A stretch of DNA of 64,000 nucleotides, taken from Cellulomonas sp. KRMCY2. GTDB lineage: Bacteria; Actinomycetota; Actinomycetes; Actinomycetales; Cellulomonadaceae. Of this stretch, positions 49,295-52,610 are shown one piece after another. How positions within the stretch are numbered: the first letter of the stretch is position 1; every line of letters begins with the position of its first letter. The stretch covers positions 3,596,001 to 3,660,000 of the forward strand of contig NZ_JAGF01000001.1 in the NCBI RefSeq assembly GCF_000526515.1, read 5' to 3'. The notes under the pieces were generated by a model. The model was given only the letters and a program-made list of their open reading frames with translations, was not told the DNA's origin and ran no database searches. The position numbers and the translations under genes were made by a program.

Positions 49295-49366
49295 GGGCGA
49301 TTGGCGCAGCGGTAGCGCGCTTCCCTGACACGGAAGAGGTCACTGGTTCGATCCCAGTATCGCCCA
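49295..49366 (+). tRNA. tRNA-Val (anticodon GAC), integration target
   Basis: 72 nt, followed by an encoded CCA at 49367-49369. Acceptor GGGCGAT/ATCGCCC; anticodon stem CTTCC/GGAAG with loop CTGACAC; T-arm CTGGTTCGATCCCAG. From 49325 (the anticodon loop) to 49370 the sequence is repeated exactly at 52485-52530, so the 3' half was restored by the inserted element. Confidence 0.96.
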
Positions 49367-49370
49367 CCAG
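49325..49370 (+). repeat. attL core (46-bp direct repeat, left copy)
   Basis: Identical to 52485-52530. The bases just outside differ (C versus A on the left, A versus C on the right), so the exact limits are clear. Confidence 0.9.
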
Positions 49371-49386
49371 AGTTTGCGCAGGTCAG

Positions 49387-49417
49387 AGGCCGTTTCGGAC
49401 GCAGCCCGGGGCTGCCT
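49387..49417 (+). terminator. Degenerate terminator-like hairpin after tRNA-Val(GAC)
   Basis: The stretch starting AGGCCGTTTCGG folds back on CCCGGGGCTGCCT with G-T pairs and one mismatch. It resembles the perfect hairpin after the right repeat copy (52557-52587). Confidence 0.5.
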
Positions 49418-49427
49418 TGATCATGCC

Positions 49428-49451
49428 CGTACGCCAACCTCAGACGCCAAC
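49428..49451 (+). repeat. Left pair of 11-bp direct repeats, 13-bp period
   Basis: CGTACGCCAAC at 49428 and CAGACGCCAAC at 49441. The same word in the same orientation occurs twice, also 13 bp apart, near the right end of the island. Likely arm-type sites for a recombinase or its accessory factor. Confidence 0.6.
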
Positions 49452-49522
49452 GGGGGCCGCGTACCCCCGCCCTGACGAACGCCGGCGGATGCGCACGGAC
49501 CCGCGTGGGAGCCTCGTGAGGT

Positions 49523-49568
49523 GGCGGTGACCCCTTCCCTTTGGGGGACCCCGGAAGAGGTCACCGCC
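49523..49568. repeat. 16-bp inverted repeat with 14-base loop
   Basis: GGCGGTGACCCCTTCC (49523-49538) and GGAAGAGGTCACCGCC (49553-49568) pair with one mismatch. It is 114 bp beyond the end of the minus-strand immunity fragment and could be its terminator, a protein-binding site, or a structured RNA. Confidence 0.75.
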
Positions 49569-49681
49569 CAGGCATCGCTGCCCTACACCACCCGGGCATG
49601 CGACCTGGCGACCTCCCGTCAGCCGCGGGAGCCAGATCCGGGCGAGCGTAGCCGCCCTCAGTGCCATGAGCGGATGTCAGA

Positions 49682-50029
49682 TCACCCTCGCGTGGCTGCT
49701 CTGAGCCGGCCAGTGAGGGTCCAGGACACGTCCAGGTCGGTGAGGCTGAGGTTGCTCGCTTCGTCGGCTCCGCCGAGGAACAGAGGGACCGTGTAGCCAG
49801 CGCACTGGTCGAACCCGATCGGCTCGGGGTGCTGGCGTAGCCACTGCTCGAAGAAGCCCGAGGCAAGGGCCGCGTCGGTGTACTCCACCAGCTCGGTGTC
49901 GTGGAACGCGGAGAAGGCGCACGGGATCTCCAGGACCTCACCGGCCCCGATGTCGAACAAGACGGTGTACGGGTCGTCGTGAGCGGCGCGCGAGGCATCG
50001 AGGGAGAACTGGCGCCCGAGCCAGTCCAT
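49682..50029 (-). pseudogene. C-terminal fragment of a Tdi1-type (DUF1851/GAD-like) immunity protein
   Basis: 115 residues from MDWLGRQFSLD. Family features are the LFDIGAGEVLEIPCAFSAFHD block, LVEYTDAALASGFFEQWL, and the end QCAGYTVPLFLGGADEASNLSL...TLTGRLR, which I recognise as the T6SS immunity Tdi1 C-terminal domain. Full members are usually ~180-200 residues. Upstream in frame the sequence still reads RIACFG, as in the family, but a TGA at 50048-50050 interrupts it and no Shine-Dalgarno precedes the Met. Probably a 5'-truncated remnant; expression as a short protein is possible. No toxin gene lies beside it. Confidence 0.7.
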
Positions 50030-50076
50030 ACCGAAGCAGGCGATCCGTCAGACCCCGCTCGTCAAGGGTGGCCGTG

Positions 50077-50304
50077 TCACCTTGCGCAGATGCTCCCGGT
50101 GCAGCGCTCTATCGGGAAGCCCTGCTCGCTGGGGTTCAGGTTGTTGCTCACACCTGGCGTGATGGTCTCGCCGGCGGTCGGCGGGGAGACGACGAAGGCG
50201 ATGGTGAGGGCGACCGCGAGAGCCAGGGCGATGGCCGCGACGGTCAGGAGCACGCGGCGGGCCGAGGCCCGGGGAAGCGCCGAGAGTTGCACGGTGGCAG
50301 ACAT
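50077..50304 (-). CDS. Small single-helix membrane protein, unknown function
   Basis: 75 residues from MSATVQLSAL at 50304. Basic N-terminus, one strong membrane helix (~18-40, VLLTVAAIALALAVALTIAFVV), then a short outer segment containing two cysteines in ERCTGSICAR at the end. No family recognised. Divergent from the LuxR gene across a 195-bp gap holding a palindrome. Confidence 0.6.
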   Translation of the reverse strand: MSATVQLSALPRASARRVLLTVAAIALALAVALTIAFVVSPPTAGETITPGVSNNLNPSEQGFPIERCTGSICAR

Positions 50305-50410
50305 CTGAGGTCCGTTCCGGGCCGCAAGTCCGTTGCGTCCCTTGGGTAGTCCGGCGGTACCGGGTCGGCACCGATCCGATGTGGTCAACGATCGGCACCG
50401 TGGGTCAGCC

Positions 50411-50438
50411 GCGGTATTCGCCTTCGGGCGTATTCCGC
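50411..50438. promoter_or_regulatory. Imperfect palindrome between divergent island genes
   Basis: GCGGTATTCGCC-TTCG-GGCGTATTCCGC: 10 of 12 arm positions pair. It lies 107 bp before the small membrane gene start and 62 bp before the LuxR start, a plausible operator for the adjacent LuxR-type regulator. Confidence 0.55.
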
Positions 50439-50499
50439 AGCAGTGTGGGCGGTCGTACCGTGGAGGCACCGCAGGGGGACCTGGTGCCTTGGAGGAGCC

Positions 50500-51288
50500 A
50501 TGGACAGCAGCCATCTTCGTGAGGGCGATGTCGACCTGATGCTGCGGGTGATCGAGGACGGCCGACACGACGACCCAGGCGAGCAGATGCCATGGGCGCT
50601 GCTGGAGGGTCTGCAGGCGCTGATCCCTGCCGACCTGGGCGCCAGCTACCAGCACTACGACTACCTCGAGCACCACACACTCGTGATGCAGGCCGTGACG
50701 GGTGAGGGCCTCCACGAAGGCCCCGACTACGCTGACATCGGGCAGGGCGACCCGTTCTGGCAGCACTGGTGGGCCAGCTACTGCTCGTATCCCCAGCGGG
50801 CGGGGGACCTGGTGAGTGTCGTCCACACCGGCGACTTCTTCGCCACCGAGCGGGATCGCCTGGCCCATCCGATGAGCGAGGTTCTGGACGACCTGAAGTA
50901 CTCAATGATCGTTTCACTGCCCGCGCCGCCGGGCCAGGCCCGCCGAGTGCTGTTCCAGCGGTGGTCCGGCCCGTCGTTCAGCGAGCGTGACCGGCAGGTC
51001 GCTGCGCTGCTCCGCCCTCACCTCGAAGAGATCTGGCTGGACGCCGAGCGGCGGCGACACGGCATCCCGCAACTCACGCCGCGGGAGTGGCAGGTACTCG
51101 CGATGGCGGCGGCGGGCCTGTCATACGCGCAGATCGCGCATGAGCTCTTCGTGTCGTTGGGCACGGTGCGCAAGCACACGGAGCACGTCCGGGATCGGCT
51201 CGGTGTGCACACCATAGGTGCGGCCGCGGCCCTCGCGCTGCCGCATGCACCGGCCGCTATCCGCATGACCGTCCCGGCTCCCGCCTGA
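50500..51288 (+). CDS. LuxR-family transcriptional regulator
   Basis: 262 residues from the ATG at 50500, 3 bases after GGAGGAG. The N-terminal ~190 residues are an unassigned sensor-like domain rich in Trp/His/Tyr (WQHWWASYCSYP). The C-terminal LuxR HTH is at ~195-250: LTPREWQVLAMAAAGLSYAQ followed by IAHELFVSLGTVRKHTEHVRDRL. No receiver-domain aspartate pocket and no clear autoinducer motif are visible. It is the only regulator of this kind in the island and is divergent from the small membrane gene. Confidence 0.88.
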   Translation: MDSSHLREGDVDLMLRVIEDGRHDDPGEQMPWALLEGLQALIPADLGASYQHYDYLEHHTLVMQAVTGEGLHEGPDYADIGQGDPFWQHWWASYCSYPQRAGDLVSVVHTGDFFATERDRLAHPMSEVLDDLKYSMIVSLPAPPGQARRVLFQRWSGPSFSERDRQVAALLRPHLEEIWLDAERRRHGIPQLTPREWQVLAMAAAGLSYAQIAHELFVSLGTVRKHTEHVRDRLGVHTIGAAAALALPHAPAAIRMTVPAPA

Positions 51289-51534
51289 TTGGTCGGGCGG
51301 ATCTCCCTGACACCAGGTCCTCGCTACCGCAACGTGGCGATCGGCTGCCGCTCGAAACACGACAGGCACCACCCTGGTTTCCGCCCGAGCCGACCTTCCG
51401 GAAGGACTCATCGGGACGCGTCATCACTTCCCCGAGGCTCCCCCTCAGAGACATCCGCAGCTCGGATTAGCGAGCATGTCGGCGGGGCAACAGCGCGCCC
51501 GACGGCACCTCATAGCACTTGTTATACTCGACAG
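51289..51534. other. Gap between LuxR and mntA
   Basis: 246 bp with no gene. It contains a perfect 12-bp palindrome CCTTCCGGAAGG (51394-51405) and the mntA promoter at its right end. Confidence 0.6.
51520..51528 (+). promoter_or_regulatory. Extended -10 promoter of mntA-hepT, leaderless
   Basis: TG-T-TATACT, a consensus extended -10 element, ends six bases before the mntA ATG, so transcription would begin at the ATG itself. No good -35 is seen, as is common for extended -10 promoters. Confidence 0.65.
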
Positions 51535-52005
51535 ATGACTCCTCCCCTGGCTCAGGTTGCTCACGACGCGGACCAGGCGGTGCTCGCCGCCCGCGCCGCG
51601 CTGGTTCGTGCCGTGCGCCAGGCAGCCGCTGAAGGGATGACGCAGGCCGAAATCGCTGCGCAGATCGGGCGCTCGCAGCCGGAGGTGTCCCGGCTGCTGC
51701 GCTTCCACGGCACCAGCCCCCTGGCGCGCCGGTTGCGAACTCACCGCGCCGAGGTGCTCCATCTGATCGCCGCGGCCGGCGGCACCAACGTTCGTGTGTT
51801 CGGGTCGGTCGCGCGCGGCACGGACCAGGCGGGCTCGGACATCGACCTGGCGTTCACCATGAGTCGTCCCCTGAGCCTGTTCGAGCTCGAGGATCTCGAG
51901 CACCGCGTCGCGCACGCCGTCGGCGCCGCAGTGGACCTCGTCCCAGACCATGCGATCCGCCCCGCGCCGCGCAGCCGCGTCCTGACCGAGGCAGTTCCCC
52001 TGTGA
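51535..52005 (+). CDS. mntA: MntA-type nucleotidyltransferase antitoxin with N-terminal HTH
   Basis: 156 residues. Residues 15-60 contain an HTH (GMTQAEIAAQIGRSQPEVSRLL, residues 34-55). The minimal nucleotidyltransferase domain from ~72 has FGSVARG (89-95), the DxD in SDIDLAF (Asp102, Asp104) and a third acid in VDLV (Asp134), so the catalytic set is complete. MntA antitoxins modify HepT by adding AMP to a tyrosine. The stop overlaps the hepT start (GTGA). The HTH suggests it also represses its own promoter. Confidence 0.88.
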   Translation: MTPPLAQVAHDADQAVLAARAALVRAVRQAAAEGMTQAEIAAQIGRSQPEVSRLLRFHGTSPLARRLRTHRAEVLHLIAAAGGTNVRVFGSVARGTDQAGSDIDLAFTMSRPLSLFELEDLEHRVAHAVGAAVDLVPDHAIRPAPRSRVLTEAVPL

Positions 52006-52337
52006 GCCGTGGCAACAGACCCGTAGCGGACGTGCTCAGCGATGCGCTGAGCCACCTGGACGCGGTCGCCGACTACGCCATCGGCAACCTGAAGGAACAG
52101 AAGACCGTCGATGCGATCTGTATGCGACTGTCCGCCGCGATCGAAGCCCTCGCCGACCTCGACGAGACCACGCGCACGGACCTCTTCGGATCGACCTGGC
52201 CGCAGATGTGGGGCATGCGCAACCGCATCGCCCACGGCTACCTGCTGGTCAATCCCCCCATCGTCCGCGCCACCGTCGAACGCGACCTCCCGATCATCAC
52301 CCGTGCCGTCAGACTCGGGCTGCGCGAACCGACCTGA
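52002..52337 (+). CDS. hepT: HepT-type HEPN ribonuclease toxin
   Basis: 111 residues, all helical. The HEPN catalytic motif RNRIAHGY (Arg73, His78, Tyr80) matches Rx4HxY, where the Tyr is the residue AMPylated by MntA in studied pairs. Begins with a GTG overlapping mntA by 4 bases. Expected to cleave RNA when not modified or bound by MntA. Length is slightly shorter than many HepT proteins (~115-140). Confidence 0.88.
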   Translation: MSRGNRPVADVLSDALSHLDAVADYAIGNLKEQKTVDAICMRLSAAIEALADLDETTRTDLFGSTWPQMWGMRNRIAHGYLLVNPPIVRATVERDLPIITRAVRLGLREPT

Positions 52338-52356
52338 CGTCCGGTGCCCGCGCCGG

Positions 52357-52380
52357 CGTACGCCAACTGCGTACGCCAAC
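52357..52380 (+). repeat. Right pair of 11-bp direct repeats, 13-bp period
   Basis: CGTACGCCAAC at 52357 and again at 52370, identical copies. Same word and spacing as the pair inside the left end of the island. Confidence 0.65.
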
Positions 52381-52484
52381 CAGCTTCCGTTCGCGTCCGT
52401 CCGCGACGGTTCGCGGGCCGTGACGCAGGCGCCTGACCTGCACAGACGTACACCGGCGGACACGCGCGAGGCCCACTCCGATCA

Positions 52485-52530
52485 CTGACACGGAAGAGGT
52501 CACTGGTTCGATCCCAGTATCGCCCACCAG
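52485..52530 (+). repeat. attR core (46-bp direct repeat, right copy)
   Basis: Identical to 49325-49370. It lacks the tRNA 5' half, so it is not a second functional tRNA-Val gene. Confidence 0.9.
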
Positions 52531-52556
52531 CATCAGACGACGATGCAGCAGGTCAC

Positions 52557-52587
52557 AGGCCGTTCCGGAGAGCTCCGGGGCGGCCTT
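52557..52587 (+). terminator. Perfect hairpin, original tRNA-Val terminator
   Basis: AGGCCG-TT-CCGGAG-AG-CTCCGG-GG-CGGCCT folds as a near-continuous stem with a short T pair after it. It was presumably just downstream of tRNA-Val before the island inserted. Confidence 0.7.
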
Positions 52588-52610
52588 CGGCAGCTCCTCC
52601 GTGACCGCGA

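What the first reader, a model, noticed from the sequence alone, without database searches (positions are those of the whole stretch)
49325..52530. 3.2-kb genomic island in tRNA-Val(GAC) with no integrase
The 3' half of tRNA-Val (anticodon loop to CCA, 46 bp) is repeated exactly 3,160 bp away, and the DNA between holds accessory genes (immunity fragment, LuxR, HTH-MntA/HepT) but no recombinase. It is either a decayed element or one mobilised in trans by another element's integrase.
Basis: partly seen in the sequence, partly recalled or inferred. Interest (0 to 1): 0.75.

Follow-up and report, generated by a model that had tools for sequence, protein, structure and literature searches.

The report
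Integrase-less island in a valine tRNA
A 3.2-kb piece of accessory DNA sits in a valine tRNA gene between two phage-type attachment sites but carries no enzyme to move itself, so it most likely depends on the integrase of related elements; this is a known kind of hitchhiking element.

Summary
tRNA-Val(GAC) 49295-49369 is intact and its 3' 46 bp (49325-49370) recur exactly at 52485-52530; no other copy lies in the single-contig 4.5-Mb genome. Between them lie a Tdi1-type immunity fragment, a LuxR regulator and HTH-MntA/HepT, but no tyrosine recombinase. The ends are attachment sites: GTACGCCAAC arm sites lie inside both cores. On the right they sit 129/116 bp from the anticodon, against 130/118 bp in mycobacteriophage Giles attP. 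A relative (G016) has the same core and arms beside an intact tyrosine integrase, 45% identical to that of Giles. Among 13 tRNA-Val elements that I could delimit in Cellulomonadaceae, 9 have no tyrosine recombinase, 1 keeps a fragment and 3 have one; several are stacked in tandem. In 12 of 13 genus genomes without such an element, DNA after the tRNA is closer to the window's outer flank, some only narrowly. So this is a solo cis-mobilizable element (CIME) with Giles-type att sites and no close integrase in the host genome. Whether it lost an integrase in place or was moved in trans is unresolved.

The parts
49295..49369 (+). tRNA-Val(GAC), the target gene, intact
   Evidence: ARAGORN; Rfam
49325..49370 (+). 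attL core: 3' half of tRNA-Val, 46 bp
49429..49438 (+). left arm-type site GTACGCCAAC (exact), 60 bp after the core
49442..49451 (+). second left arm-type site, degenerate (8 of 10 letters)
49682..50029 (-). Tdi1_C-like immunity protein fragment, 115 aa
   Evidence: Pfam 24.9 bits, below cut-off 27.4
50077..50304 (-). short ORF with a hydrophobic stretch, about 75 aa, start chosen by eye, no confident family
50500..51288 (+). LuxR-type regulator, 262 aa; 3 other genomes of 220 in the family have a homologue at E<=1e-25 (about 50% identity)
51535..52005 (+). HTH-MntA adenylyltransferase antitoxin-like protein; GSx..SDID motif present
52002..52337 (+). HepT-like RNase toxin; RX4HXY motif RNRIAHGY present
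52358..52367 (+). right arm-type site 1, GTACGCCAAC
52371..52380 (+). right arm-type site 2, GTACGCCAAC
52435..52441 (+). conserved GACCTGC motif of the right end, 52 bp before the anticodon (53 in Giles attP)
52485..52530 (+). attR core: second copy of the 46-bp repeat
52531..52591 (.). displaced chromosomal flank of tRNA-Val; together with the second core 94% identical over 111 bp to the contiguous tRNA half and flank of G012

Best explanation
The 3.16-kb segment is a non-autonomous integrated element (a solo CIME) in the 3' end of tRNA-Val(GAC). Its two ends, read as a circle, would make an attP of the mycobacteriophage Giles type: two direct arm sites, a GACCTGC motif, the tRNA-half core and two more arm sites. 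A Giles-family tyrosine integrase and its excisionase, brought in by a related element that integrates at the same core or beside it, would recombine attL with attR and circularise or carry the island. Reintegration restores the tRNA 3' end from the element's own copy. Shown: site structure, shared arms and geometry, a matching intact integrase in a relative, no tyrosine recombinase in the island and no close relative of that integrase in the genome, similar elements without tyrosine recombinase and tandem stacks in relatives. Inferred: that this integrase acts on these arms, excision and transfer, and that MntA/HepT helps to retain the island.
For: Exact core repeat. Arm motif with up to 1 mismatch: 10 places in the window against 2.1 expected; all 3 exact ones lie in the island ends. 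Tandem arms in 5 of 200 family genomes, reversed control 0. Of 63 arm tandems in public species genomes and viral contigs, 18 lie within 250 bp of a tRNA or 700 bp of a P0001-like integrase, 5 of them both; 45 lie near neither. Same core and arms plus an intact integrase in G016. Giles geometry and Giles integrase 44.8%. A right-end model, trained on six ends including the window's, hits 33 of 221 family genomes at E<=0.001, 14 of them at 40 bits or more. Left and right arm class agree in 11 of 11 elements scorable on both sides. Arms on both sides of a core, meaning tandem elements, in 7 of 18 stretches examined. Displacement test.
Against: No excision or transfer was observed. The second left arm is degenerate and the inverted third site seen in some relatives is not recognisable, so the left end may be partly decayed. 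The genome's own integrases are distant from P0001 (best E 1.5e-18, 30% identity). Three genes right of the island (MmyB-like, DinB, GH15) are not beside the tRNA in the 8 relatives without a class-A element for which 7 to 19 kb were fetched, so the empty-site comparison rests on about 60-75 bp. Integrase-bearing elements of the family exist (3 of 13 delimited) and one relative keeps an integrase fragment (G151), so decay in place also occurs. 45 of 63 arm tandems have neither tRNA nor integrase nearby.
Confidence: 0.86

Rival explanations
1. In-place decay: an autonomous element integrated here and later lost its integrase, excisionase and transfer genes by internal deletion; what remains is a relic that has never moved as an integrase-less unit. 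(A sub-case of the CIME reading.)
For: G151 keeps a 61-aa integrase fragment beside its left arms, G181 matches P0001 only in pieces in different frames, and G002 has a fragment beside tRNA-Val, so decay happens at this site. One left arm of the window is degenerate.
Against: No integrase or excisionase remnant in the window island by tblastn at E<=5 beyond chance level (best 17 aa, E 0.049). The core is 46/46 and three of four arms are exact. The toxin-antitoxin motifs are present.
Confidence: 0.42
2. Independent mobile unit: the integrase-less island was itself picked up and moved, at least once, by another element's integrase in trans or by tandem accretion. (The other sub-case of the CIME reading.)
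For: 9 of 13 delimited tRNA-Val elements of the family have no tyrosine recombinase, and the 11 compared share no cargo apart from two short stretches. In G016 an integrase-bearing element and a tandem neighbour with no detectable integrase end beside its left arms share the site; tandem junctions are common.
Against: No identical integrase-less island was seen in two species; the state could have arisen separately each time. G016's contigs do not span its array.
Confidence: 0.45
3. Degenerated tandem tRNA-Val duplication with unrelated genes between.
For: Seven genomes of other genera have two complete tRNA-Val(GAC) genes close together.
Against: The window's second copy has no 5' half; it has the right end (arms, GACCTGC) shared with relatives. 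The six duplications checked have no arm sites.
Confidence: 0.02

Closest known systems
CIMEs (cis-mobilizable elements) of streptococci and Streptomyces TR1
   Same: Keep attL and attR at a gene 3' end, lack integration and transfer genes, carry cargo, found in tandem with integrase-bearing elements; sizes of 1.2 to 13 kb are given (passages seen: PMC7563491, PMC5704250, PMC8369830)
   Different: Here a solo element at tRNA-Val(GAC) in Cellulomonadaceae with recognisable Giles-type arm pairs; the parent element is not identified
Mycobacteriophage Giles attP/integrase system
   Same: Paired direct arm sites on both sides of a tRNA-half core; right-end arms at 129/116 bp and GACCTGC at 52 bp from the anticodon, against 130/118 and 53; the integrase of the relative G016 is 44.8% identical to that of Giles. 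PMC3203893 says that Giles has pairs of putative arm-types in direct orientation (passage)
   Different: Different tRNA and arm letters, other side 102/115 against 91/103 bp; the island has no integrase and no structural phage genes by PHROGs
Dehalococcoides ssrA genomic islands
   Same: Tandem islands at one RNA gene 3' end; the integration module is reported for sixteen of them (passages of PMC3146451)
   Different: Serine recombinase of the Ccr kind there

Membership tests
CIME | flanked by attL and attR (direct repeats of the target gene end) | tested here: met
   46-bp repeat and arm sites inside both ends
CIME | no functional integration genes | tested here: met
   no PF00589 match in the interval; no recombinase among the five ORFs scanned
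CIME | no conjugation or mobilisation genes | tested here: met
   the five called ORFs scanned with Pfam, NCBIfam, PADLOC and PHROGs: none
CIME | derived from an ICE or IME by deletion | tested here: inconclusive
   no remnant in the window; remnants in G151 and G181; no direct parent found
CIME | mobilised after accretion with an integrase-bearing element | not testable with these tools
   tandem junctions seen in relatives; excision needs the bench
Giles-type attP | pairs of direct arm sites on both sides of the core at similar distances | tested here: met
   the second left arm is degenerate
Giles-type attP | linked Giles-family integrase | tested here: not met
   absent in the island, no close homologue in the genome; present in G016, G018, G030, G200
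IME or ICE | own integrase plus relaxase or conjugation genes | tested here: not met
MntA/HepT (type VII) toxin-antitoxin | adjacent MntA nucleotidyltransferase and HepT with their motifs | tested here: met
   both Pfam families over cut-off, genes overlap, motifs present; the NCBIfam equivalog models hit below their cut-off: 42.6 and 34.4 bits against 60

The most novel reading that the evidence does not exclude
In Cellulomonadaceae, integrase-less islands with Giles-type attachment sites are a standing class of passengers, not just relics: at tRNA-Val(GAC) they are more frequent than integrase-bearing elements, come in three arm-sequence classes that match left to right, and are moved repeatedly by whichever integrase of that class enters the cell.
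Probability: 0.35. Interest if true: 0.6.

Novelty: new member of a known kind. Interest (0 to 1): 0.42.

Why it matters
Solo integrase-less islands are easily missed when a search starts from an integrase; the S. salivarius study says its method could not identify single CIMEs (PMC7563491 passage). Here arm sites and a right-end pattern find them without an integrase, link them to a phage integrase family, and predict which integrase class should move which island. That makes 'relic or passenger' testable. The cargo includes a toxin-antitoxin pair that could explain retention (inference).

Tried and rejected
Tandem tRNA duplication: rejected for the window (no 5' half, attR features), though it is real in seven genomes of other genera. 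Own-genome helper: P0001 and PF00589 searches give only distant integrases. Shared cargo between 11 delimited elements: none by blastn apart from a 94-bp stretch (G151/G243) and the integrase end (G018/G151). HTH-MntA homologues: 25 of 99 genomes including the own one; closest other 62% in G236 of another family, its surroundings not checked. LuxR homologues: 3 other genomes of 220; in G210 and G200 they lie on other contigs than the tRNA-Val element, for G190 the tRNA was not located. P0001 on plasmids: at most 36.5% among the 12 rows listed. Two viral contigs with the arm tandem were not studied further. 45 of 63 arm tandems had neither tRNA nor integrase nearby, probably chance or coding matches. 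In one search the esterase query was in a doubtful frame, so it is not counted as a test. Of the 33 genomes hit by the right-end model, 10 (all weak) were not fetched: G212, G211, G166, G193, G190, G185, G260, G116, G097, G117; of G181 only 3 kb. Papers: searches (open PMC library only; one search listed 15 of 112 and 10 of 28 papers) listed no title on this element or on tRNA-Val islands of Cellulomonas; of the papers cited I saw only the passages named. The Giles genome paper itself was not held.
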